A stretch of DNA of 64,000 bases, from contig JAJPIJ010000046.1 in NCBI GenBank assembly GCA_021324815.1, positions 94,734-158,733 on the forward strand, read 5' to 3'. This stretch comes from Gammaproteobacteria bacterium. Its GTDB lineage: Bacteria > Pseudomonadota > Gammaproteobacteria > JAJPIJ01. The first letter of the stretch is position 1. Each line of letters starts with the position of its first letter. Both the position numbers and the translations under genes were made by a program. The notes beneath the pieces are model-generated. The model was not told the DNA's origin and ran no database searches. It saw only the letters and a program-made list of their open reading frames with translations. This document shows, one piece after another, positions 9,286 to 24,778 of this stretch.

Positions 9286-10410
9286 TCAGTTCACCTTGAG
9301 CAGCGCGCCGTAGCAGCTGAAACCGGCGCCGAAGCTGGACAGCCACCAGGCGCCCGGCGCTGCGCCGCCGGTGAGGGCCCGATCGAGGGCGAACAGCACG
9401 CTGGGACTGCTCATGTTGCCGTATTCGCTTAAGACTTCTGCGCTCCAGCGCGTGGCGTCGTCATCCAGGCCCAGCCGCTCGCGCAGGGCCGAGAGCACAT
9501 CGCGGCCGCCGGCGTGCCAGATCCATGTTTGAATGTCCTTGCGCGGCAGGCCCTGCTCCATCAACACTCTATCGAGCACGGTTTCGGCGTATTGCGCCGC
9601 CAGCCGCGGCACCGGCGGGGTCAGGATGTTGCGCAGCATGCCGCGGCGGTGCTCGAATCGCAGCAGTTCGCGATGCGCCGGCGCGGTCTCCGCGCCAAAC
9701 CCGATCCATTCGATGCGGCGGCCGCCGTTCACCGGCGGCTTGGGACCCAGCACCAGCGCCGCCGCGCCGTCGCCGAACAGGCAGGCGCTGACCAGCACGC
9801 CGGGGTCGTCGTCGAGGTAAAAGGCGGCGCTGCACACCTCCACGCACACCGACAGCACCCGCGCGCAGTCGCCGCCCGAGAGCAGCGCCTGGGCCATGCG
9901 CAGGTTGGGCAGCGCGGCGCCGCAGCCGTTGCCGACCAGGTCGAGGGCGATGACATCGGAGCGCAGTCCCAGCCGCTCGATGAGGTAGCTTGACAGCCCC
10001 GGGCAGAGATAGCCGGTGCAGGTGCTGACGAGAATGGCGTCGATGGCCTGGACGTCGACCGCCGCGTTGGTCAACGCCCGCAGCCCCGCCTGCGCGCCCA
10101 GCGCCGGCGCGTGCTGCTCAAAGCGCCGCTGCAGGGCGTCGGGGTTGAATTGATCGATCTCGGTGATCTGATCGAGCGCCAGATGGCGGCTGCGGATGCC
10201 GTTGCCGCCGGCCAGCAGCTTGCGCATGAGCGCCTGGGAGCGCGAATCGAGGCCGCGGTAGACCTCGGTCTGACGCAGCGCCTCGTAGCAGGCGGCCTGT
10301 GGATAATGGTGCGCAGGCACGGCCGTGCCGACGCCGTCGATGAACATCCGCGATGCGGACGCCGCGGCCGGCAGCGGAAAGGGGGTGGGGAAAAGCTCGG
10401 GCAGATTCAT
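9286..10410 (-). CDS. Type III polyketide synthase (chalcone/stilbene synthase family)
   Basis: GNGCGAALPNL active-site Cys region, CTGYLCPGLSSYL, GDGAAALVLG, SYGNMSSPSVLFALD; internal ATG at 10410 preferred over 10587. Confidence 0.9.
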   Translation of the reverse strand: MNLPELFPTPFPLPAAASASRMFIDGVGTAVPAHHYPQAACYEALRQTEVYRGLDSRSQALMRKLLAGGNGIRSRHLALDQITEIDQFNPDALQRRFEQHAPALGAQAGLRALTNAAVDVQAIDAILVSTCTGYLCPGLSSYLIERLGLRSDVIALDLVGNGCGAALPNLRMAQALLSGGDCARVLSVCVEVCSAAFYLDDDPGVLVSACLFGDGAAALVLGPKPPVNGGRRIEWIGFGAETAPAHRELLRFEHRRGMLRNILTPPVPRLAAQYAETVLDRVLMEQGLPRKDIQTWIWHAGGRDVLSALRERLGLDDDATRWSAEVLSEYGNMSSPSVLFALDRALTGGAAPGAWWLSSFGAGFSCYGALLKVN

Positions 10411-10614
10411 GCGCTCCTGCTCCCGGTGGCTGTGGTTGTCCGTACTTCGCAGTAGAATGATTTTTTCTTGATCGACCCGTCGTGCCGGCGGTTCAACCGC
10501 GGCGGCGGGAACGGTCCTCCTTCCGCGGCGCCGGGCCAAAAAGGCGCGCAAAAGACTTCGCGTGGCGGAATTCCCGTCACTGGTCACGTGTAAAAGGCGA
10601 CGGCAGCCGGCGCG

Positions 10615-11031: not shown

Positions 11032-11302
11032 GACGGCCCTCCTTTGTGTAAAGGACAGGCATCACATTACTCCCACTCCGCGGCAAATTCGACATGTGGC
11101 CGGATCCTCCGACATGGATGACGTCGGGGCCCTTTCCGGAAGACGCCAGGACCTTCACATCGTGTCATCCGCAAGATGAACGCCGTCTTAACGGCAGCCG
11201 TCACCATGATATGCCCGGCGCTGACCGGGCACCCATGGACCGCGGCGCATGGCGGGCCGCCGGAAACGGTTCCGCGGCGTCTCCGCCCGATGATTCTTAA
11301 AA

Positions 11303-12061
11303 TCAACCGCCGGCGGGTTTGTCAGTGGCTTGCAGCAGCGGCTTCAGCAGATCGATGGGCAGCGGGAAGGCGATGACGGAACTCCGCTCGCCGGCGATTT
11401 CGGTGAGCGTCTGCAGGAAGCGCAACTGCATGCTCTGCGGATTTTTCGCCAGCGTCTGCGCCGCCTGCAGCAGTTTTTCGGAGGCCTGCAACTCCCCCTC
11501 GGCGTGGATGACCTTGGCGCGCCGCTCGCGCTCGGCCTCGGCCTGTCTGGCGATGGCGCGGACCATGCTCTCGTTCAGATCGACGTGCTTGATCTCGACG
11601 TTGCTGACCTTGATGCCCCAGGCCGACGTCTGCTCATCGAGGATCTTCTGAATGTCGGCATTCAGCCGATCACGTTCGGCCAGCATCTCGTCCAGTTCAT
11701 GCTGGCCGAGCACCGAGCGCAGCGTGGTCTGCGCCAGCTGGCTGGTGGCGGCGTGAAAGTTCTCCACCTGGATGATCGCCTTCTCCGGGTCCATCACGCG
11801 GAAATAAATGACGGCGTTGACCTTCACCGAGACGTTGTCCCGGGAGATCACATCCTGCGTCGGCACGTCCATGACGACGGTGCGCAGATCCACGCGCACC
11901 ATCTTTTGGATTCCCGGGATGAGGATGATCAGCCCCGGACCCTTGATCGCCTGATAGCGTCCCAGAAAGAACACCACGCCGCGTTCGTATTCGATCAGCA
12001 CATTCAGCACCGTCCACAGGATCAGGAGCGCCAGAACAACCAGAATGGTCATGAAAGTCAT
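11303..12061 (-). CDS. Slipin/SPFH-band 7 family protein
   Basis: [13 protein letters not shown]...[20 protein letters not shown]; paired with NfeD. Confidence 0.9.
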
Positions 12062-12062
12062 G

Positions 12063-13469
12063 TCATTTCTCCTCGTTTACCGCCTCCACATTCAGGGTCA
12101 GGCCGTCGAGCGCGGTGACGCGCACCTTCTGCCCCGTCTTCAACGCCACCGGCGAGTGCGCGCGCCAGACCTCGCCCCGCGCCCGCACGCGACCGACGCC
12201 CTCGAAATCCTCCAGCACCTCCCCCAGGCTGCCGATCATCGCCTCGGCTCCGCTCACCGACCGGCGGCGATGGAACTTCACGGCCAGGCCGGCGACGCCC
12301 ATGAAAAATGCAGCGCTCAGGAGCGCGAAGCCGCCGATCAGTGGCAGTGATATGCGGTAGGCCTCGCCGCCCGCGTCGAAGAGGATGAATGAGCCGATCA
12401 AAAAGGCGGTGACGCCGCCCACGCCGAGCGCGCCGAAGCTCGGCACGAACATTTCGGCGATCATGAAGGCGATGCCGATCAGCATCAACGCCAGCCCCGC
12501 ATAGTTCACCGGCAGCACGTTGAGCGCGTAAAGCGCCAGCAGCAGGCTGATCGCGCCGGCCACGCCCGGCAGGACGTGGCCGGGATTGGCCAGCTCGAAG
12601 AACAAACCGTAAAAGCCGAGCAGCAGGAGCATGTAGGCGATATTCGGGTGGGTGATCGCGGCGAGCAGCCGGTCATGCCAGTCGGGTTCGACGGTTTCGA
12701 TGACGGCATCCTTGAGATCAAGCCGGCGCGATTGTCCGCTGACCCGGACCTCGCGGCCGTCGAGCGCGGTGAGCAGCGAATGGAGATCGGATGCAATCAG
12801 ATCGATTACATTCCGCTCCAGGGCCTCTTTGGCCGGCAGACTGGCCCCTGTGCGCACCGCCTGCTCCGCCCAGTCGACGTTGCGGCCGCGCATCTGCGCC
12901 AGGCCGCGCAGATAGGCCACGGCGTCGTTGACCACTTTTCTGCCCATGGCGTTTGCCGGCGCCGCCGCCGGCTCGTCCTGAACGCCGGGCCCAGGTTTCC
13001 CGGCCTCGCCGCCGCCGGCCTTCTCCTTTTTCTCATCGTTGCCGTCGCGGCTGCCGGCGGGTGGTTTGAAAATCGGGAGTTCGCCCAGCGGCACGGGCGT
13101 CGCCGCGCCGAGGTTGGTGGCCGGCGCCATCGCGGCGACATGGGCGGCGTAGGTGATGTAGGTGCCGGCGCTGGCGGCGCGCGCCCCCTCAGGCGCCACG
13201 TACACGGCCACCGGCACCGGCGAGGCGATGATGTCCTGCACGATCTCGCGCATCGATTCGTCCAGCCCGCCGGGCGTGTCCAGTTCGATGACGACCAGCG
13301 CCGCATCTTCCCGAGCGGCGCGATCAAGGTTGCGATGCACGTAATCGCTGACCGCCGGGCCGATGGCCTGGCGTACCTGGAGCACCATGACACTCCCGCG
13401 TTCATCGCCCCCGACGGCGGCGGACGTGAGCAGAAGCGCGGGCAGCATACCAATCCACCACCACATCAA
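12063..13469 (-). CDS. NfeD family membrane-bound ClpP-class serine protease homologue
   Basis: [45 protein letters not shown] plus C-terminal NfeD OB domain. Confidence 0.9.
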
Positions 13470-13500
13470 CGGCCTCCCGAGCCCCCATGACGGAGCTCAC

Positions 13501-13546
13501 TGATGAAAGCATAGTACAAACGGAGTGGCGGAGAGGGTGCTCATGC
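13501..13546. repeat. Left imperfect direct repeat flanking the CRISPR-Cas island
   Basis: tgatgaaagcatagtacaa (13501-13519) + tgctcatgc (13538-13546), matched at 21689-21707 and 21725-21733. Confidence 0.6.
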
Positions 13547-13731
13547 TCCGGGCTGGGCGTGAACCACCTCAAGGGGAAGGCACTTTGCCGGACTCTAAAG
13601 AATTTCTTGTCGGCACGCGACCACCATCGGAAAGCCTGATGTTACTTGGTCGCCCGTAGGTTATTGACCTTTTAGTGTTTTTTAAGTTGAGAGTTGTTCA
13701 AGCACATTCCACAGTGTGCCTGTAGGGGGGA

Positions 13732-14124
13732 TTGCCTCACGATTCCCGCAGTCGCGGCGACTGCGGCGCCCTCAATGCCGGTGCGCTCATACCGCCAGCT
13801 GCTGCCGCCTCACGATTCCCGCAGTCGCGGCGACTGCGGCCCCTTTGTGAATGATTGACCCCAAAGCTACGGTTTCCGCCTCACGATTCCCGCAGTCGCG
13901 GCGACTGCGGCTGAAGCTGAAGCCGTTGCTCACGCTGACCGAAGTGCCGCCTCACGATTCCCGCAGTCGCGGCGACTGCGGCTATAGTGCTTTTAGCACT
14001 TCTATCCATTGCCAACTTCCGCCTCACGATTCCCGCAGTCGCGGCGACTGCGGCGCCCGCGCGGTAAAAATTCTCGCCATGCAGGTTGCCGCCTCACGAT
14101 TCCCGCAGTCGCGGCGACTGCGGC
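13732..14124. CRISPR. CRISPR array: 6 repeats of 36 nt, 5 spacers of 37/35/35/36/34 nt
   Basis: Repeat CCGCCTCACGATTCCCGCAGTCGCGGCGACTGCGGC at 13732 (first two bases TT instead of CC), 13805, 13876, 13947, 14019, 14089; spacers all different. Confidence 0.98.
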
Positions 14125-14309
14125 CCCCCCCCTCCCAAACACCTTAAGAATCCAACGCCTGCCGCTGCATGTTGCGAGCACAAGGCGAGATGAGACGGGG
14201 GGACACTAGAGAACCGGAAGACGGTGGTCGCCATTCACCTGTTTCTCCAGGCAAAATCGAAGTGCGAGCGTCCATGAGGTTTTGGGCCAGCACTTCCGCA
14301 CTCGCAACG

Positions 14310-14443
14310 TCGCCGCATTGTTATAGAGCGCAGTCGTCGCGACTGCGGGAATCATGCCAACCCAATGGCGGAGGGTTGATGGTCGGTGGCCTGTGGCCAA
14401 AAAATCAGGCTAATACTTTGGGCAGGAAGTTTCAAGTTCAGAA
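14310..14443 (-). ncRNA. Candidate tracrRNA region
   Basis: Lies between cas2 and the array and contains a degenerate, inverted repeat copy (14329-14356); RNA ends not determinable from sequence. Confidence 0.45.
14329..14356. repeat. Degenerate inverted CRISPR-repeat copy (anti-repeat candidate)
   Basis: cGCAGTCGTCGCGACTGCGGGAATCATG matches 26/28 of the reverse-complemented repeat. Confidence 0.75.
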
Positions 14444-14734
14444 TCAGATGATGGTCACCCGTGAACGCACTTCGTAGGGCAACCCCATTGCGTCGATAAT
14501 CAGGCTGGCATCACTGCTGTTCGGGCCGAGCGAAACAAATAACACCTGATCCTCGTCGTGGTTAATCAAATCCCAAAGCTCGGCCTTCAGCTTCGCCAGG
14601 CGGAGGTCATCCAGCGGACATTCAAAGACCGAGTATTGCAGGCGCACGCCAAAACCCTCCAGTGAACGCGCCACCCGCCGCAGCCGTTTCGGGTCGCTGA
14701 TGTCGTAACTCACAAGGTAGCGAATCCGGCTCAT
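14444..14734 (-). CDS. cas2: CRISPR-associated endoribonuclease Cas2
   Basis: MSRIRYLVSYDISDPKRLRRVARSLEGFGVRLQYSVFECPLDD; start overlaps the cas1 stop. Confidence 0.95.
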   Translation of the reverse strand: MSRIRYLVSYDISDPKRLRRVARSLEGFGVRLQYSVFECPLDDLRLAKLKAELWDLINHDEDQVLFVSLGPNSSDASLIIDAMGLPYEVRSRVTII

Positions 14735-16534
14735 CGCGTGGTAAATCCGTGATAGGTCAATGCTTCTCCGCGCACAAAACGCCACAACTGCCGCGCCTGT
14801 ACTTCAAGCATCCGGCGATAAGCCATCTTGTAGCTAAACTCGGGGTGGCTGACCTCCGTATCCAGCCGCCGAAACCATGCCTCCCAGAACGGCCGCCGGC
14901 CTTTTTCTGTCAGGAAAGTCCCATTCGCGCTCTTGATGAAATCCTCGGGGCCAAGTTCACCACGATTAATGAGGCTGATGGCGACGCTGTCGGCGATGAG
15001 GGGTCGAAATTCCTCCATCAAATCCAGCGCCAGTGCGGGGCGGCCATAACGCGGCTGGTGCATGAACCCTAGAAATGGATCAAGCCCCACTGTATGGCAG
15101 ACGCCGGTCAGTTCCTTTGCCAACATCGAATAACCGAGAGAGAGCAGCGCGTTCACGGGATCGCGCGGCGGACGGCGGTTGCGCCCGCGCCAGTCAAACT
15201 TCCAGTCAGCCCTTTGTTTCAGCATGGCTTCAAACTGCTCAAAATAGAGTGCCGCGGCGCCGCCCTCAAAACCAATCAATTCCGTAATGTCTCCCGCTGA
15301 TTCCGTGGCGTCACGGAAACCAGCCATCAAACTCAGGACGCGATCCGATGCATCACTGTTACGCATGAGCAAGACGCGCTGGTTATGGATTTTGGCGCGG
15401 ATTACTTCGCGGGCCAATTGCAGCCGCAAGCCGGGCAGCTCAAACAGCCGATATTGCCCGCGTCGTGCGTCCACCCCGCTGGCGGGCAGGCCGCAGAGCA
15501 TTCCAAGAAAGCGCCCCGCCGGCGAAAAATAGGCAACCTCAATGCCCAATTCCAGACACGTCTCCATGGCCTGGGCCGTCAGTTGAATTGCACCATAGCA
15601 ATAGATCGCCCGCACCTGCTGGCCGGGAATTTTACGCACGCTTTCGCCTTTGACGCTGACGATCAATTCGTCGCCGCGCTGGCCGATTTGCGCGCCGGGC
15701 GTTTGTACCACCAGCACTTCGCCCTCATCCCCACCGGGGCGTGGTGGCTGCAATGTGGGTTCTTTACCCGTGGATTCCGCGGCAAAATCCAAGGCTTCCA
15801 AAATCCGGTCGCTAACTGCATCTTCAGGTTCTTCAGCAAATTCGAACCGTAGCTGGCCCTCTGGCTCGACATTCATGCGCCGTTTTGCCCACCAGAGTGA
15901 TTCGTTGGGCAGGCATATGGGGTAGGCGGAGCAATAAAGACAACGCGCGTCATTCTTCAGCGGAGGAGGACATTTCCCGCTGGCGGCAACTGCCCGTGCT
16001 TCCTCGATGGATTTGCGGACTTTGTCGAACAGCTCCTCAGTGAATTCTACCGGCACACGTCGCTTGTCTGCTGCGTAATAAATCCAGCCGCGCACGGCAT
16101 TGATCCCATGCTCACGCAATAGCAGTTCGTAGGCGGCGACCTGCACAGCGTCTGGTTCTTTCGCCACGCGGCCGCCTTCGTTATCACGGCGGGCGGAGCC
16201 TTTTTTGTAGTCAATGATTTCCGCGCCATCCGGCCCCCCCCTCGACCACATCCACGACGCCGACCAGACCGAGCGATTCGCTTTCCAGGCGCAGGCTGCG
16301 GAGCTTCGACCCTTCCGGCAAACCAAGTTCCCTGGGATCATCCAGTTTGGAAGGCGCGTCCACGTTGCGATGAACATGGCTGCCGGCCACCGTGTCGGCG
16401 TTTTCCTGAAAAATGTTTTCGACCCATTGGAAATAAAACAGCCGTGGGCAATAGACGAAATTGTTGAGCCGGCGCACGGGCATTGGCGGCTGGGGCTCCA
16501 GTGTGCCGCTGACTTGAAGCGGGGCGTCGCTCAT
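14731..16534 (-). CDS. cas4-cas1: Cas4-Cas1 fusion protein (about 600 aa if a 1-nt frameshift is corrected)
   Basis: ORFs 16211-16534 and 14731-16377 join if one G is removed from the G8 run at 16234-16241. Cas4: FVYCPRLFYF, GVVDVVEGG(P)DGAEIIDYKKG, CLYCSAYPIC. Cas1: GFEGGAAALYFEQF, GFMHQPRYGRPALALDLMEEFRP. Confidence 0.9.
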
Positions 16535-16540
16535 GGAGGC

Positions 16541-19500
16541 TCAAGTTCTCCTGCTCCACTCCTCTGGCGGCTCAATTCCCCATGCCTTCAATCGCGCGGC
16601 ATTGATGGCCATGCAGTGCCGCCAAGCTTCTTGGCTCACGTAGCCCCAAAGAGCTTTGCCAACGACCAGATGCTTGGGTTGCGGCACGCTAGTAGGTCCG
16701 CCTTTCAACGCGGCGGCGTGGTCGTGGATCCATGTGTGCAAATTGGCGATGTCAGCGAAAAAGTTCGGGTGACGGCTGTCACTTGCCTTGGGCACGCTCT
16801 TGACCGCTTGCTGCCGCAAGCGGCGCTTTTCCGCTTCGTCTGCGGCCTGCTTAGACTGTTTCATCGCTTCGTCCGCTGTCAGGATTCGGATCTGAATGCG
16901 ACTCTCCTTGGATTGTTCGCCGAACTTTCGCTTCTCCCTCTCGCTGACAAAGAACGTGTCCGGCTTGATGTCCTCCACGGGGATGACGGCAGCCTGGGTG
17001 GCTGCTTTTTTGCCCCGTCCGCGTCTTGGCTGGTGACTCGATAACATTTCCGGTTTCCGCTCGGAGCGAAGTCGCGAATGGATGCTCCAAACGCGCGGGT
17101 CGGCCACGGCGCGTAAGCCGAGGTTCACGGCAGCATTGATGTCGGCGTGAATCAGCTTCGGCTCCTTTTGTTGATTTTCCTCAAGCATGACCGGCTCAAA
17201 TCGAACGATTGGCTCGCCTTTAGTCCGTCGCTCGTGCCCGGCTAAAAGCCTGCTGATTGGTATGAAGATGCTGCCGCCCGCGTCGGGCGCGAGCAATGTG
17301 CGCGCGGGCAAGCCTTTGGATTTGGCATCGTCATTGGCGCTTTTCACCTGCTCAAAAAAGAGTTCCCACTGCTTGCGTCGTTTTTCCTGTTCCGTCCGTT
17401 CCTCTTTCCTTTCCTCCGGCTTGCAAACGCGCCATCGCCATTTCGGCTCTTGCATTGGATCGCCGGAAAGCTCCGTGGCGCGGAAACCGGCGACGCCGGT
17501 TCGCGAGCAGAAGCGCGACGAGTAGGCGGCGGGTGTCTCGACCAACGGCAAACCAAATGGCTCGCACATCTGCTTGAGCTTGTCGCGGATAGCCCGGTGA
17601 CACCATTTCATCAGGCGGCTGTTCTCCCGCGGCGCGCGACCCTGGCTGGTGCGGTAGCGGCTGAGGTCTTCGATGACGATGAAATCAACAATGCCGCACC
17701 ACTGGTTGCCTTTCTGGGGAGTGACGGGCTGGCCCTTGATATCCGCCTTCACGTATTCGCCGTGGGTGTCTTTAGCTTGGCGCAATTGGGCCTCGGCGTG
17801 GTCTTTCGGCTCGGTCGGCTTCTCGAGCGTCAAACCGAGCGCCTGCGTCAGAATCATGTGGGCCGTCTGATTCCGGCGCTGCTCCTTGATTTCGTCCAGT
17901 TTGCCGAGAATCGTCGGGCACGGATCGGGAATGCTTTCATCGCGAGAGGCTTTCGGCGCGCAGCCAATGTCGCGCCGCAACATTTGGTTGAGCGACTGGC
18001 AGCGTTTCCGCAGTTCCTCAAATTGCTCGATGCGTTCGATGGAAAGCCCGCGCTGGCCGGCGAGCCACTTTTCCTCCTCTGTCAGCCCGTCGCGTTCATC
18101 GGCTGATCGCAGAGTAAAATCCAGCAGGTGACAATCCGGCCTGTCCGGGTGCTTTCGCCAGACCAGCCGCCCGCGTCGAGAGCGGTAGATACGGTTTGCA
18201 ATCGTTTCCAACCAGTCTGGCAGCTTTTCGACCAGCGACTTCAACTGCGTTTTCAACGCCTGCACGATTTCCGGATGCTGCTCCGGTTCTTCTTCCGCTT
18301 TGTCCAGCTGCGTGTTCCTGGCCTTGGCTTTTTCGTGAGCGTCCTTGTTCAACCATTCGTGCGGATCGCTTTCAGCGATTTCCTTAATGGCGATGCGGCG
18401 GCGCTTCGCCTGATCCTCGCGCTTGACCTCATCCTGCGGATCGAGAAACCAAATCCAGCGGTGAAGTTTGCTGGCGAAGGACTGCGCGCGGCGGAGGGCG
18501 ATGAGCAGCTTCGTATTCTGATCCGGGAACGAGACCCGTTCTGACAGTGTCGCTGCATCCCTGATGCTGTCATCCAGCAATTCGAGTTGGTGGAACTCCT
18601 TGAGCAAATCCAATGTCTGCTGGCTCTCGGCCTTCGTTGCGTTTCGACCGGCGGACCCGGAAAGCTCCCGGCGGAAATCCTCGCTGCCGGGCACGGGTTT
18701 TCCGTCCTTGAAGTCCGGGCGATAGACCTTGGCATCTTCGCCGGGCAATCGTAGCAAGCCGGTCGTGAGCACCCGCGCATACCAGTCGCGGCGTTCTCCA
18801 TTGTGCTCGGTTCTGCCGATGAAGCGCGCGTTCTTCCGCTCGTCGTCCGACAGGCAGCAACTCACTTCGATGATGGCGTAAGCGCCGGCCTGTTTCTGCC
18901 CAAGGTCAACCGAGAGAAGACGGAATGATTTGAGGTCAGGATCGGCGAACCACTGGCGGGGGAATTCCTTATTCCCTTGCACTTTCGACCAGTCTTCGTG
19001 AGGCCACCGCAGCGTCGAATCGTGGTCGTCGCCGTTCCAGTTGAACTGCATCGCCCACGGCCATTTCTCGCGTCCCATTTCCTCCCGCACATGAGCGATG
19101 AACCTGTCCTCCTTCGGCGTGAGTACGAAGTTCAGCAGCAGTCGGTCGGGTTGGTCATTGCGGCTGCCCGGCTTCCAGTCTGGCATCAGCGAAACGGCGT
19201 GCTTCTTGAAGTCGTGCAAATCGTCGTCGGGAATTCCGAGCGCCCGCATCAGCGGCTGCGCCCAGTTCGCGGACTGCAAATCCTCGTTCTCAGACAGCGC
19301 GCGCGCCTCATCCCGCAAGAGCCGCGGCGCGGTGTAGTGAATGCGAACCTCCGCCGGGCGATAGAGCACACCAGCGTTGTCGCCGCACTTCACGGCAATT
19401 TGCGTGGTGAAGGAAAGGCCGTCGGGGCTGGCCTCGTGCGCGAAGCCGCCTTGCGACGCGCCTTTGAAATCGAACAATCGGCGTGAATCGCGCGCGTCCG

Positions 19501-21616
19501 CGGGGGTGTATTGCACGGGCCGCTTCTTCTTCTCCAAGTCCTCCAGCACGTCACAATACCGGAGGTAGTCGCGGACGATGTTTGTGGAATAGAGGTTTTT
19601 TACCCGCTCCTTCTCCTCGTCAGGAGTGGGCGCTTGCCAGACACACCAGTTGTCCTTCTTGACCAGTTCCTCGAACAGGCGACTGTCGCCCATATCATCG
19701 CGGTGTTGGCGCTGGTAGGCGGCGATGCAATGCTTCAGCTTTGTTTCCTTTCCCGCCGAATATGTCTCGCCCGGCGCGACCACTTTGTTCCATTCCTCGC
19801 GCAGTTCTTCGTAGCCGCGCAGAGCTGCTTGGCTGATGCCGTAGCGATAGATGGTCTTCGGGTCTGCCCCATCGGCTACGCCGAGCGATTCGTGAATCCG
19901 CCGCATCGCGGCGAAGCGCGGGTCGCCGCCGGTCTCGCTAAAGCCGCCGGGAATGAAATCCTCCTCCTCGCCATCATCGGCTTTGCCTTTCTCGCGGGCT
20001 TTGCCTTTCTCGCGGCCTTTGCCCTCGTAGAGTTTCTTAAGTTCCTCGAGTTTTTTCGCCTCATTGTCCCGCTCCTTCTGCTTTTGCCGGATTTGGTGCG
20101 GTGACTTGATCGCTTCCTCGTAGGCGGCATAGTCGAACTTCGTCCAGCCGAAGTAGCCAGGTTTGCAAGCGCCGCTTGGTTCAGCCGGGTCGCCTTCCTG
20201 CGCGAGAAATCCGCACATCGCTGTGAAGCTGGGGAAGATGTAGCCGAGCTTACGTTTGAGCCGGGGGATAAAATCTGTCCTAGCAACGGATGTGACCGTG
20301 GGTTGGTTGCCTGATTTGGCTGCGGCTTTGCGGGCTTTCTCCACTTTTTCAGCGGGTTCTTGGCCGTCGTCGCTTCCGCAGAGATCAAACTTGTCAACGA
20401 ACTCAACATAACGGCGCTTGTCATTCTTGAGCAGCCAACCCGCGTAACGGTCCTTCAATCTGGCCTTGAGCAGGGTCGCTGTGAACTCCGAGCCGCCGTC
20501 AAAATGGAACAGCACAAATAATTCGACACGAACATTGTCTTTGCCCGGCCCGCTCCGCTTCCAGTTTTGGATGCGAAAAGTGCTCGCGGATTCGGGATTT
20601 TCCTTCCGGCGTTGTTCTTCGTCGTGTCGCTTGGCTTGAATCAGCTCCTGCAGCCGCTTCAGTTCTTTGGTTACGTCAATATTGCTCCCACCAAATCGCT
20701 CGAACACAAAACAAAACGTCTTGTCCTTCAGCATTTTTTTCGCGGTGTTCAAACATTGCTCAAGCTGATTGATTGCGTCCTCGCCAACGAGATAGCCCGT
20801 GTCGTCGCTGTCTCCGGCCGCCTCGGCGGCCTCTTGTTCGCTGTTGGCTTCCGGCGCGTCGCCATTCTCACCTGAGGGCTCTCCGGCTTCTTCGCCCGCT
20901 TCTACACCGCTCAAACAACTGTCTTTGACCGATCGCGCTGATAATTGTCTGAGCGCCGCTGCGTCCGCTTGGAACAAGGCATCCATGAAATCGTAGATGC
21001 CCTGTTGGTTGCGGTAAGTTTTTTCGGCGGGAGGTTCGCCGCCCTTGTGTTTCCAGCAGAGCCAGCCAGGGTCTTCGTTCGCCAGCTTTTGGGGCGTGCC
21101 CCGGCTTTTCTCCGGGAACAGTTCGCCGATGACGCCGCGAAAAACATCGTGGAGCTTCCCGTCCGCCCGCTTTGGAAACTTCGCAAAGGCGTGGCCGAAA
21201 ATGCGATCAATGCACTGTTCCCGCGTGATGGATTTCGCGTCCAACCCAAGGGTGCGCGCCAGCGAGTGCTTCAATCCCGCTCGTTTGCCGCCTTTGTGAA
21301 CGAAGTCGTCCCACCGCCCCTCGATGCAGCCGTCAGCGGTCTTGGGCTTGCCGTTCCCGAACAACTGCTCGGCAAACTGGGCCATCGGTGTCGGTTTTTC
21401 CTTTCCGTCCTTATCTTTCTCAACCATCCCGTCCGCCATCGCCGCGAGCGCGAAGGCGTAGTAGTTCACCGCATCCTGAAACAGCGCGTGATGCTCCCAC
21501 AGCATTTGCTCGCCGAGTTTGCGCGCGGCTTTCGGATCGTCGGCGAGCGATTTGAATCCGCCGTGACCGTCTGCAATTTCGACTGCGCTGACGCGGCCTT
21601 GGTAGATGCGGTTCAT
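16541..21616 (-). CDS. cas12b: Type V-B-like effector (Cas12b family), unusually large at 1691 aa
   Basis: RuvC-I LLSVDLGQKQAGAYAIIEV, RuvC-II IVIEDLSRYRTSQGRAPRENSRLMKWCHR, SSRFCSRTGVAGFRA, RuvC-III HADINAAVNLGLRA; N-terminal LWEHHALFQDAVNYYAFAL and ALRGYEELREEWNK resemble AacCas12b segments; adjacent cas4-cas1 and cas2. Confidence 0.9.
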   Translation of the reverse strand: MNRIYQGRVSAVEIADGHGGFKSLADDPKAARKLGEQMLWEHHALFQDAVNYYAFALAAMADGMVEKDKDGKEKPTPMAQFAEQLFGNGKPKTADGCIEGRWDDFVHKGGKRAGLKHSLARTLGLDAKSITREQCIDRIFGHAFAKFPKRADGKLHDVFRGVIGELFPEKSRGTPQKLANEDPGWLCWKHKGGEPPAEKTYRNQQGIYDFMDALFQADAAALRQLSARSVKDSCLSGVEAGEEAGEPSGENGDAPEANSEQEAAEAAGDSDDTGYLVGEDAINQLEQCLNTAKKMLKDKTFCFVFERFGGSNIDVTKELKRLQELIQAKRHDEEQRRKENPESASTFRIQNWKRSGPGKDNVRVELFVLFHFDGGSEFTATLLKARLKDRYAGWLLKNDKRRYVEFVDKFDLCGSDDGQEPAEKVEKARKAAAKSGNQPTVTSVARTDFIPRLKRKLGYIFPSFTAMCGFLAQEGDPAEPSGACKPGYFGWTKFDYAAYEEAIKSPHQIRQKQKERDNEAKKLEELKKLYEGKGREKGKAREKGKADDGEEEDFIPGGFSETGGDPRFAAMRRIHESLGVADGADPKTIYRYGISQAALRGYEELREEWNKVVAPGETYSAGKETKLKHCIAAYQRQHRDDMGDSRLFEELVKKDNWCVWQAPTPDEEKERVKNLYSTNIVRDYLRYCDVLEDLEKKKRPVQYTPADARDSRRLFDFKGASQGGFAHEASPDGLSFTTQIAVKCGDNAGVLYRPAEVRIHYTAPRLLRDEARALSENEDLQSANWAQPLMRALGIPDDDLHDFKKHAVSLMPDWKPGSRNDQPDRLLLNFVLTPKEDRFIAHVREEMGREKWPWAMQFNWNGDDHDSTLRWPHEDWSKVQGNKEFPRQWFADPDLKSFRLLSVDLGQKQAGAYAIIEVSCCLSDDERKNARFIGRTEHNGERRDWYARVLTTGLLRLPGEDAKVYRPDFKDGKPVPGSEDFRRELSGSAGRNATKAESQQTLDLLKEFHQLELLDDSIRDAATLSERVSFPDQNTKLLIALRRAQSFASKLHRWIWFLDPQDEVKREDQAKRRRIAIKEIAESDPHEWLNKDAHEKAKARNTQLDKAEEEPEQHPEIVQALKTQLKSLVEKLPDWLETIANRIYRSRRGRLVWRKHPDRPDCHLLDFTLRSADERDGLTEEEKWLAGQRGLSIERIEQFEELRKRCQSLNQMLRRDIGCAPKASRDESIPDPCPTILGKLDEIKEQRRNQTAHMILTQALGLTLEKPTEPKDHAEAQLRQAKDTHGEYVKADIKGQPVTPQKGNQWCGIVDFIVIEDLSRYRTSQGRAPRENSRLMKWCHRAIRDKLKQMCEPFGLPLVETPAAYSSRFCSRTGVAGFRATELSGDPMQEPKWRWRVCKPEERKEERTEQEKRRKQWELFFEQVKSANDDAKSKGLPARTLLAPDAGGSIFIPISRLLAGHERRTKGEPIVRFEPVMLEENQQKEPKLIHADINAAVNLGLRAVADPRVWSIHSRLRSERKPEMLSSHQPRRGRGKKAATQAAVIPVEDIKPDTFFVSEREKRKFGEQSKESRIQIRILTADEAMKQSKQAADEAEKRRLRQQAVKSVPKASDSRHPNFFADIANLHTWIHDHAAALKGGPTSVPQPKHLVVGKALWGYVSQEAWRHCMAINAARLKAWGIEPPEEWSRRT

Positions 21617-21666
21617 GTGCCCCCCGTTTATGGAAACGGTTAACTCAGAACTCTAGTGACAGAATT

Positions 21667-21682
21667 ACCCCCTGGTGGGGGT
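21667..21682. repeat. Perfect hairpin ACCCCC-TGGT-GGGGGT next to the right island repeat
   Basis: Inverted repeat read directly. Confidence 0.6.
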
Positions 21683-21688
21683 GCGTTT

Positions 21689-21733
21689 TGATTAAAGCAT
21701 AGTACAAGCTACGTACGCAGAAAATGCTCATGC
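21689..21733. repeat. Right imperfect direct repeat flanking the CRISPR-Cas island
   Basis: tgattaaagcatagtacaa (18/19 to left copy) + tgctcatgc (9/9) at nearly the same spacing. Confidence 0.6.
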
Positions 21734-21841
21734 AGCATGTTTGGCGGGGGAGGGAGGGGCACAGCGCGGCAAAAGGCGCGGCGAAATGCGCCACGTGCCT
21801 CAACGCAGGGTGGTTGAGGGGGACAAATCGACAACCAGATG

Positions 21842-21873
21842 CTGACGGCCCCGACGCGGGGCCATGGCGTCAG
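21842..21873 (-). terminator. Candidate fhs transcription terminator hairpin
   Basis: Nested inverted repeats CTGACG/CGTCAG and GGCCCCG-ACG-CGGGGCC just after fhs stop; no clear U-tract. Confidence 0.35.
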
Positions 21874-21877
21874 ACTG

Positions 21878-23554
21878 TCAAAACAAGCCGACGATGTTGC
21901 CGTGCTCGTCGATGTCGATCTTTTCGGCGGCCGGCACCTTGGGCAGGCCGGGCATGGTCATCAAGTCGCCGCAGATGGCGACCACGAAACCGGCGCCGTT
22001 CGACAGCCGCACTTCGCGCACGTTCAGCGTGTGGCCAGTGGGGGCGCCACGCACGCTGGGATCGGCGGTGAATGACATTTGCGTCTTGGCCATGCAGATC
22101 GGGAAGTGGCCGTAATCCTTGTTCCATTCGTCGAGCTGTTTTTTCACCGCATCGGCGAAGGTCACCTGGCCGGCGCCGTAGATCTTGGTGGCGATGGTCT
22201 TGATCTTCTCGGTCAGCGGCAGGTGATCCTCATAGACGTAGGTGTGCTTTTTCTTCGATTTCTCGATGACATCGATCACCGCATGCGCCAGATCCTCCGC
22301 GCCGGCGCCGCCGTGCGCCCAGTGCCTGGCCACGACAAACCGGCCGCCCAGCGATTCGATCTTGTCCTTGAGCAGCTTGATCTCGGCGTCGGTGTCGAAG
22401 GTGAAATGATTCACCGACACGACGCACGGCAGGCCGTAGTGATCGCGGATGTTGGTCAGGTGTTTTTCGATGTTGACCATGCCCCTGGCGAGCGCGTCCA
22501 GGTTCTCCTTGTTGAGTTCCTCCTTCCTGACGCCGCCATGGAACTTGAGCGCGCGGATGGTGGCGACCAGCACTACCGCCGAGGGATTCAAGCCGGCCAT
22601 GCGGCATTTGATGTCGATGAATTTCTCCGCGCCCAGGTCGGCGCCGAAACCGGCCTCGGTGACGCAGTAATCGGCGAGCTTGAGCGCGGTGCGCGTGGCG
22701 GTGACGCTGTTGCAGCCGTGGGCGATGTTGGCGAACGGCCCGCCGTGGATGAACGCGGGGTTGTTCTCCAGCGTCTGCACCAGGTTCGGCTTGATGGCGT
22801 CCTTGAGCAGGACGGCCATGGCGCCGTGGGCCTTGAGGTCGCGCGCGTAGACCGGCCGCCGGTCGACCTGGGTGTAGCCGATGACGATGCGGCCGAGGCG
22901 CTCCTTCAAGTCCTTGAGCGAGGTGGCCAGACACAGGATGGCCATGATCTCGGAGGCCACCACGATGTCGTAGCCGTCCTCGCGCGCGAATCCGTTGGCG
23001 GTGCCGCCCAGGCCGATGACGATCTTGCGCAGCGCGCGGTCGTTCATGTCCACGACCCGCTTCCACTGGATGAGCCGCGGGTCGATGCGGAGTTCATTGC
23101 CGTGGTTGATGTGGTTGTCGATCATCGCGGCCAGCAGGTTGTGCGCGGCGCCGATGGCGTGAAAGTCGCCGGTGAAGTGCAGGTTGATGTCCTCCATCGG
23201 CACCACCTGGGCATGGCCGCCCCCGGCGGCGCCGCCCTTGACCCCGAAGACGGGGCCGAGCGAGGGCTCGCGCAAACAGATGATGGCCTTTTTGCCGATC
23301 CTGTTGAGGGCATCGCCCAGACCCACGGTGGTGGTGGTTTTGCCCTCGCCGGCGGGCGTCGGGCTGATGGCGGTGACCAGGATGAGCTTGCCGTCCGGCC
23401 GCTTCTCTATTTCCCGCAGGTAATCGAGCGAGAGCTTGGCCTTGTAGTGGCCGTAGGGCTCGAGATATTTGCTGTCGATGCCGAGTTTTGTTTTTGCCAG
23501 TTCGATGATGGGTTTCATCGTTGCCTTTTGGGCAATTTCGATGTCCGACTTCAT
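21878..23554 (-). CDS. fhs: Formate--tetrahydrofolate ligase
   Basis: [53 protein letters not shown]. Confidence 0.97.
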
Positions 23555-23797: not shown

Positions 23798-24778
23798 ATG
23801 AGCGAGGAAGGGCTGATGATTGAAGAAGAAGATTTGACCGTCCGCGCACCGGAACGCACCGATGTCCAGATGGCGGTATTATTCGCGGATCTGGCCGGCA
23901 GCACCCGCATGTACGAGCTGCTCGGAGACGCCCAGGCCAAGTTCATCATCACCGATTCGCTCGGCAAATTGACGCAGGTGGTGAAGGAATTTGACGGCCG
24001 GGTGGTCAAGACCATCGGCGATGAATTGATGTGCGTGTTCAAGACCGCGCACGAGGCGGTCCTGGCCGGACGACAGATGATCAAGGTGGCCTCCGATCTG
24101 GAGGTGCCGCAGACGGCCGACGCCACGGGCCTGCTGCACCTGCGGGTGGGGGCGCACTACGGCCCGGTCATCGAGGAGCGCAACGATATTTTCGGCGACA
24201 CCGTCAACGTGGCCTCGCGGCTGGTGTCGCTGGCCAAATCCAACAGCTTCATGGCCAGCGAAACCATCGCCAAGGCGCTGCCCGAGGCCTTTCGCTATCT
24301 GGTCTCCTTTTATGACACCGTGGTGATACGCGGCAAGACGCGGCCCCTGGACGTGTTTGAAATCCTGACCGACGCCGTCAAGAGCGACGAAACGGCCAGT
24401 TTCGCCAGGACCACGGAGATCACCCATGGCCCGCTGGCCAAGGCCAGGCTCAAGCTCAAGGTGCGCAGCTCCAACCAGACGCTGGAGGTCTCCAAGCAGA
24501 AGCCCACGGTCACCATCGGCCGGGGGCGCAACAACGACATCGTCCTGGATCACAACATGGTGTCGCGGGAGCACGCGCGCATCGATTACAAACATGGCTC
24601 GTTTTACGTGTCCGACTTCAGCAGCAACGGCACCTACATCGAGCTGCAGGGCGGCACCCGCACGCTGCTCAAGAAGTCCGACTGCAACCTCGCCATGAAC
24701 GGGGTCATGTATTTCGGCGAGGAGCCCAGCCGTAAGGCCAAGACGGCGCTGGAGTTCGTGCTGACCGGCGCGTCGTGA
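23798..24778 (+). CDS. Class III adenylate/guanylate cyclase-like protein with C-terminal FHA domain
   Basis: FADLAGSTRMYELLGD, VVKTIGDELMCVF; FHA TIGRGRNNDIVLDHNMVSREHARI..FSSNGTYIEL. Confidence 0.9.
   Translation: MSEEGLMIEEEDLTVRAPERTDVQMAVLFADLAGSTRMYELLGDAQAKFIITDSLGKLTQVVKEFDGRVVKTIGDELMCVFKTAHEAVLAGRQMIKVASDLEVPQTADATGLLHLRVGAHYGPVIEERNDIFGDTVNVASRLVSLAKSNSFMASETIAKALPEAFRYLVSFYDTVVIRGKTRPLDVFEILTDAVKSDETASFARTTEITHGPLAKARLKLKVRSSNQTLEVSKQKPTVTIGRGRNNDIVLDHNMVSREHARIDYKHGSFYVSDFSSNGTYIELQGGTRTLLKKSDCNLAMNGVMYFGEEPSRKAKTALEFVLTGAS

What the first reader, a model, noticed from the sequence alone, without database searches (positions are those of the whole stretch)
16541..21616. Giant Cas12b-like type V effector (1691 aa) in a complete V-B-like locus
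Seen: RuvC-I (VDLG, D at about residue 904), RuvC-II (VIEDLSRY, E at about 1316) and RuvC-III (HADINAA, D at about 1491). Known: AacCas12b is about 1129 aa with catalytic D570/E848/D977, and Cas4-Cas1 fusions are a hallmark of V-B. Comparing spacings, this protein carries roughly 330 extra residues before RuvC-I, about 130 between RuvC-I and -II and about 45 between RuvC-II and -III, while keeping N-terminal anchors (LWEHHALFQDAVNYY; ALRGYEELREEWNK). Inference: a deeply diverged, expanded V-B variant or new subtype, in an apparently gammaproteobacterial host where V-B is unusual.
Basis: partly seen in the sequence, partly recalled or inferred. Interest (0 to 1): 0.92.

Follow-up and report, generated by a model that had tools for sequence, protein, structure and literature searches.

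The report
Unusually large Cas12b CRISPR nuclease locus
This is a type V-B CRISPR-Cas immune system whose DNA-cutting protein, Cas12b, is about 50% longer than the well-studied ones; it belongs to a known family, and a relative of the same size is already in public databases, so it is an unusual member rather than a new kind of system.

Summary
ORF 16541-21616(-) is one open frame of 1691 aa with RuvC residues D904, E1316 and D1492. NCBIfam's Cas12b equivalog NF033949 matches it over positions 1-1252 of 1253 with 1172.8 bits (cut-off 150). It is a type V-B effector, not a new subtype. It is expanded by about 560 residues over AacCas12b, in many separate inserts and with no recognisable extra domain. 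A 1668-aa relative (79% identity) lies on a GenBank contig and scores higher on the same model (1325 bits); a 1496-aa Cas12b has a solved structure (9kln). The enlarged protein is under purifying selection (dN/dS 0.12).

Everything lies on one strand: cas12b, cas4-cas1, cas2, tracrRNA, array. The locus sits in a lower-GC block that the sister genome lacks at this site.

Caveats: the Cas4 domain is split by a frameshift at a G8 run, no spacer target was found, and the AlphaFold model was uninformative. V-B is rare in this class (1 of 369 genomes sampled).

The parts
16541..21616 (-). cas12b, 1691 aa, giant type V-B effector; RuvC D904/E1316/D1492 intact
   Evidence: NF033949 1172.8 bits; PADLOC Cas12b 484 bits; invariant catalytic residues
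16211..16534 (-). cas4 N-terminal half (107 aa frame), first part of the Cas4-Cas1 fusion
   Evidence: NF049935 cas4g_cas1g profile positions 2-85; frames read
14731..16377 (-). cas4 C-terminal half + cas1 (548 aa frame); the coding part starts near 16235
   Evidence: NF049935 profile positions 91-546, 516 bits; Cas_Cas1 299.8 bits
16230..16245 (-). G8 homopolymer (GAGGGGGGGGCC) where the Cas4 frame shifts (position approximate)
   Evidence: sequence and frames
14444..14785 (-). cas2, 113 aa frame
   Evidence: PF09827 72.4 bits; PADLOC Cas2g 89 bits
14329..14430 (-). putative tracrRNA: hairpin, then stem CAACCC/GGGTTG (14378-14358) enclosing the short anti-repeat CCGCC (14371-14367), then the long anti-repeat (14356-14329)
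   Evidence: 25/27 anti-repeat, 0 in shuffles; duplex and fold; only such site in the genome; same layout as the A. dauci tracrRNA
13732..14124 (-). CRISPR array: 6 repeats of 36 nt (minus-strand form GCCGCAGTCGCCGCGACTGCGGGAATCGTGAGGCGG) and 5 spacers of 34-37 nt; the terminal repeat at 13732-13767 is degenerate at its crRNA-sense 3' end
11093..21879 (.). block absent from the same locus in a genome of the same genus: slipin, nfeD, CRISPR array and cas genes
   Evidence: blastn against sister genome L019: matches end at 11092 and resume at 21880

Best explanation
This is a type V-B CRISPR-Cas adaptive immune system with an enlarged Cas12b. Shown by sequence: the effector has the Cas12b framework with an intact RuvC triad; cas4-cas1 and cas2 lie downstream on the same strand, followed by a tracrRNA-like element and a 6-repeat array. 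Inferred: the tracrRNA pairs with each crRNA repeat through a long anti-repeat duplex and a 5-bp short anti-repeat pseudoknot next to the spacer, RNase III trims the duplex, and the Cas12b-dual-RNA complex recognises a 5' T-rich PAM, opens the target DNA and cuts both strands with its single RuvC site. The roughly 560 extra residues are many inserts across the N-terminal REC/WED half, the RuvC-I to RuvC-II stretch and the C-terminal Nuc part, probably enlarging the existing lobes rather than adding a new activity. Spacer capture by Cas4-Cas1/Cas2 may be impaired in this strain if the Cas4 frameshift is real.
For: NF033949 Cas12b equivalog: 1172.8 bits against a cut-off of 150, positions 1-1252 of 1253. 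The first 544 residues alone match it with 177 bits and the last 181 with 51 bits. PADLOC Cas12b profiles give 376-484 bits, Cas12i only 22. PDB Cas12b chains are the best matches. D904/E1316/D1492 are invariant. Cas4-Cas1 and Cas2 families match. Six 36-nt repeats plus one anti-repeat are the only such sites in 2.37 Mb. The A. dauci V-B locus, used as a control, has the same cas2-tracrRNA-array order, strand and stem-enclosed short anti-repeat; Cas12b duplexes are described as a long R/AR stem plus a pseudoknot with a 5-7 bp short R/AR stem (PMC11246509). dN/dS against L001 is 0.124 overall and 0.09-0.32 across expanded stretches.
Against: No expression, cleavage or PAM data exist. No spacer target was found. 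The Cas4 domain is split by a frameshift. The N-terminal ~580 residues did not align independently to shorter Cas12b in my two-sequence profile comparison, except 585-662, and part of the NF033949 score may come from giant sequences in its seed. The AlphaFold model of residues 700-1691 was uninformative, mean pLDDT 31.
Confidence: 0.93

Rival explanations
1. A new type V subtype, related to but outside V-B.
For: Only 21-28% identity to the shorter Cas12b proteins over the alignable length, about 35% even in the RuvC-II segment, and 1691 aa.
Against: The full-length equivalog match is over the curated cut-off by more than 1000 bits; locus architecture and tracrRNA layout are those of V-B; other Cas12 profiles match only through RuvC-II. 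L004 and A. dauci Cas12b, both undisputed, are themselves only 27% identical.
Confidence: 0.05
2. A decaying system: the effector is intact but the adaptation module is broken, so the locus is no longer updated.
For: The Cas4 domain is split at a G8 run; the array is short, 5 spacers; no spacer matches were found.
Against: A one-base change in a G8 run is also a common sequencing or assembly error. Cas1, Cas2 and the effector frames are open, and the effector lineage is under purifying selection. Five of the six repeats are identical.
Confidence: 0.3
3. A nuclease-inactive, binding-only V-B variant such as V-B3/Cas12b3.
For: Inactivated V-B effectors exist (Cas12b3, PMC12669027).
Against: D904, E1316 and D1492 are all present and conserved, whereas Cas12b3 has substituted RuvC-I and RuvC-II residues.
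Confidence: 0.02
4. The great length is an assembly or frame artefact (read-through into a neighbouring sequence).
For: The genome is a 54-contig draft.
Against: An independently assembled contig carries a 1668-aa homologue, 79% identical end to end, with dN/dS 0.12.
Confidence: 0.01

Closest known systems
Uncharacterised Cas12b on GenBank contig RFJA01000163.1 (Alphaproteobacteria MAG J090), locus L001
   Same: 1668 aa, 79% identical over the whole length, same expansions, followed by a Cas4 start on the same strand.
   Different: Different upstream neighbour (its flank does not match the window), no array on the short contig, Cas4 cut by the contig end.
1496-aa Cas12b with solved structures (PDB 9kln, 9klo, 9klp, 9klq) and its relative L004 (1397 aa)
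   Same: Enlarged Cas12b; the same three RuvC motifs; profile of A1 matches 9kln with 605 bits.
   Different: 28% identity between the window protein and L004; about 200-300 residues shorter. The literature for 9kln was not found in the held library.
Type V-B of Alicyclobacillus / Bacillus (AacCas12b, BthCas12b; A. dauci plasmid locus L007)
   Same: Family, RuvC triad, gene order cas12b ... cas2 - tracrRNA - array, stem-enclosed short anti-repeat followed by long anti-repeat.
   Different: 1108-1137 aa rather than 1691; about 21% identity to A. dauci Cas12b; the window tracrRNA lacks the inner hairpin inside the pseudoknot stem.
V-B3 (Cas12b3)
   Same: A V-B variant (PMC12669027).
   Different: Cas12b3 is inactivated and shown on an Actinomyces conjugative plasmid; this protein keeps all catalytic residues.
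Type I-G adaptation module (Cas4g/Cas1g)
   Same: Closest NCBIfam model of the Cas4-Cas1 fusion and closest PADLOC models of Cas1 and Cas2.
   Different: The effector is Cas12b; the fusion is split by a frameshift and its longer frame scores 516 bits against a cut-off of 560.

Membership tests
Type V-B / Cas12b | Full-length match to the Cas12b family above its curated cut-off | tested here: met
   NF033949 1172.8 bits, positions 1-1252/1253
Type V-B / Cas12b | Split RuvC with D/E/D catalytic residues and no HNH domain | tested here: met
   D904, E1316, D1492 invariant; no HNH hit in Pfam
Type V-B / Cas12b | Cas4-Cas1 fusion plus Cas2 next to the effector | tested here: met
   Cas4 and Cas1 joined as in the fusion, but split by a frameshift inside Cas4; Cas2 next
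Type V-B / Cas12b | CRISPR array next to the cas genes | tested here: met
   6 x 36-nt repeats at 13732-14124
Type V-B / Cas12b | tracrRNA with long anti-repeat plus short anti-repeat pseudoknot | tested here: met
   sequence-level only: anti-repeat 25/27 and stem-enclosed CCGCC complementary to repeat 3' GGCGG; control locus L007 has the same layout
Type V-B / Cas12b | Length near 1100-1500 aa | tested here: not met
   1691 aa; not a defining feature, since NF033949 also covers the 1668-aa relative with 1325 bits
Type V-B / Cas12b | WED-REC-RuvC-Nuc fold | tested here: inconclusive
   AlphaFold model of residues 700-1691 had mean pLDDT 31
Type V-B / Cas12b | RNA-guided dsDNA cleavage with a 5' T-rich PAM | not testable with these tools
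   needs a bench assay; no protospacer found to infer a PAM
V-B3 (Cas12b3) | Substituted RuvC-I and RuvC-II catalytic residues | tested here: not met
   catalytic residues present; definition from PMC12669027
Type V-I (Cas12i) | Full-length match to Cas12i profiles | tested here: not met
   only 60 residues around RuvC-II, 22 bits

The most novel reading that the evidence does not exclude
The two giants (1691 and 1668 aa) form a distinct, undescribed V-B variant, the largest Cas12b proteins seen here, in which conserved enlargements of the REC and Nuc lobes change function, for example guide-RNA handling (the tracrRNA lacks the inner hairpin of the pseudoknot stem), target specificity or a protein partner.
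Probability: 0.25. Interest if true: 0.55.

Novelty: new member of a known kind. Interest (0 to 1): 0.35.

Why it matters
[quoted passage not shown] A lineage that keeps about 560 extra residues under purifying selection asks what those residues do. With tracrRNA, repeat and effector all identified here, the system can be reconstituted directly. Otherwise the locus is an ordinary V-B system by family, mechanism and architecture.

Tried and rejected
Searches for relatives in viral contigs with the protein, the 3-sequence alignment and the RuvC-II alignment found none. Phage records: none; plasmids: only A. dauci Cas12b through RuvC-II. Spacer targets: array against phages none, plasmids one 35-nt match at E=0.03 spanning repeat and spacer, taken as chance, 22-nt spacer cores in viral contigs none. 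Rfam: only spurious matches far below gathering score. Plus-strand reading of crRNA and tracrRNA considered: long duplex equally good (-63 against -61 kcal/mol), and GCCGCA upstream of the anti-repeat could pair with the repeat end TGCGGC. Disfavoured, though not excluded, because the degenerate terminal repeat, the strand of the cas genes and the control locus all favour the minus strand. 16S in the draft genome: none found. Paper search for 9kln: no relevant hit.

Full report
The open frame at 16541-21616 on the minus strand is real: 1691 aa, ATG start, no internal stop, recovered as one frame in the whole genome. Against AacCas12b (D570/E848/D977, 1129 aa, own knowledge) the excess is +334, +134, +47 and +47 residues, 562 in all.

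Family. NCBIfam's Cas12b equivalog NF033949 matches residues 39-1670 to model positions 1-1252 of 1253 with 1172.8 bits against a cut-off of 150. Three PADLOC Cas12b profiles give 376-484 bits; Cas12i gives 22 bits, only around RuvC-II. The N-terminal 544 residues alone give 177 bits and the C-terminal 181 residues 51 bits on NF033949, so the length is not a foreign domain fused to a Cas12b. For comparison, the 1668-aa relative scores 1325 bits, the 1397-aa one 1032, and the two pieces of the broken Alicyclobacillus dauci gene 390 + 483. That the relative scores highest suggests (inference) that such giants are in, or near, the model's seed; part of the N-terminal score may therefore be circular. 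In an independent two-sequence profile comparison the N-terminal half aligned to shorter Cas12b only at residues 585-662 (E 1.7e-4), the C-terminal half over 268 columns (E 1.4e-19). A 1496-aa Cas12b has solved structures (9kln and three more), and a profile of the three sequences matches it with 605 bits.

Where the extra length lies. Aligned with the 1397-aa and A. dauci proteins, the extra residues are many inserts of 13-54 aa (17-32, 55-83, 87-99, 294-307, 323-354, 395-416, 665-678, 1457-1480, 1554-1570, 1615-1668); the alignment at 21-28% identity makes exact borders uncertain. Between the window gene and L001, dN/dS is 0.124 overall; stretches rich in extra residues have 0.10-0.18, and an acidic linker (230-300) 0.32. 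The enlarged protein is thus maintained, not decaying.

Locus. Downstream on the same strand are cas4-cas1 (closest to the Cas4g/Cas1g fusion model) and cas2. The Cas4 domain is split: the first frame covers model positions 2-85, the second 91-546, and the shift lies in a run of eight G. A real mutation, a programmed shift and a sequencing error cannot be told apart here; L001 ends too early to help.

Six 36-nt repeats with five 34-37-nt spacers lie at 13732-14124. A single anti-repeat (25 of 27) lies at 14329-14356, between cas2 and the array. In the entire 2.37-Mb genome the pattern with up to two mismatches occurs at the six repeats and this one site only, with none for the control. On the minus strand the anti-repeat is preceded by a stem CAACCC/GGGTTG that encloses CCGCC, complementary to the last five bases (GGCGG) of the repeat. 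As a control, the A. dauci V-B locus has, between cas2 and its array and on the same strand, a stem CAACGG/CCGTTG enclosing GTGCCA, complementary to its repeat end TGGCAC, followed by its long anti-repeat. Published work describes Cas12b duplexes as a long repeat/anti-repeat stem plus a 5-7-bp short one in a pseudoknot (PMC11246509). The degenerate terminal repeat lies at the far end with its damaged bases at the crRNA-sense 3' end, which fits transcription from cas2 leftwards. The plus strand is energetically as good for the long duplex, so the strand is well supported but not proven.

Setting. A genome of the same genus has formate-tetrahydrofolate ligase directly next to the ACT-domain gene; sequence similarity stops at window 11092 and resumes at 21880. 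The block between (slipin, nfeD, array, cas genes) was gained here or lost there. The CRISPR-cas part has 58-59% G+C against 62-66% around it. L001's upstream flank does not match the window. This fits horizontal movement, as reported for V-B in general (PMC6342934). Cas12b over the cut-off was found in 1 of 369 genomes of the class, 0 of 385 of a second class, 1 of 48 of a third and 2 of 398 of the phylum. The pyrG-kdsA-enolase-ftsB order (enolase by Pfam; the others by reading the translations) is consistent with a gammaproteobacterium; no 16S gene was found in the draft.

Mechanism. Shown by sequence: effector, intact catalytic triad, adaptation genes, array, tracrRNA-like element. Inferred from the family: dual-RNA-guided binding at a 5' T-rich PAM and double-strand cleavage by the single RuvC site. 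Not shown: expression, PAM, targets (none found), fold (model of no use).

Verdict. A true, strongly diverged and unusually large Cas12b in a V-B locus, in a family and size class that public annotation already covers. It is not a new subtype on this evidence; whether the giants deserve a variant name needs a broad tree that could not be built here.

Noticed in passing
11093-21879: A 10.8-kb block (slipin/Band 7 gene, nfeD, CRISPR-cas) is absent from the same locus in a genome of the same genus; nfeD has homologues elsewhere in two genomes of another genus of the family, so gain of the whole block or partial loss in the sister are both possible.
   Followed up: partly
16230-16245: Run of eight G at which the Cas4 domain changes frame; mutation, programmed shift or assembly error.
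   Followed up: partly
9286-10587: Type III polyketide synthase-like (chalcone synthase family) gene next to an ACT-domain gene; both also next to each other in the sister genome.
   Followed up: no
23798-24778: Adenylate/guanylate cyclase domain fused to an FHA domain, conserved in the sister genome.
   Followed up: no
L007:2407-5771: The Alicyclobacillus dauci plasmid cas12b is annotated as two overlapping pieces (a broken or frameshifted gene) beside an intact cas2, tracrRNA and array.
   Followed up: no
L010, L012 (G619), L005 (G102), L006 (G421): Weak sub-threshold matches to the RuvC-II part of the Cas12b model in other Pseudomonadota, probably TnpB-like proteins.
   Followed up: no
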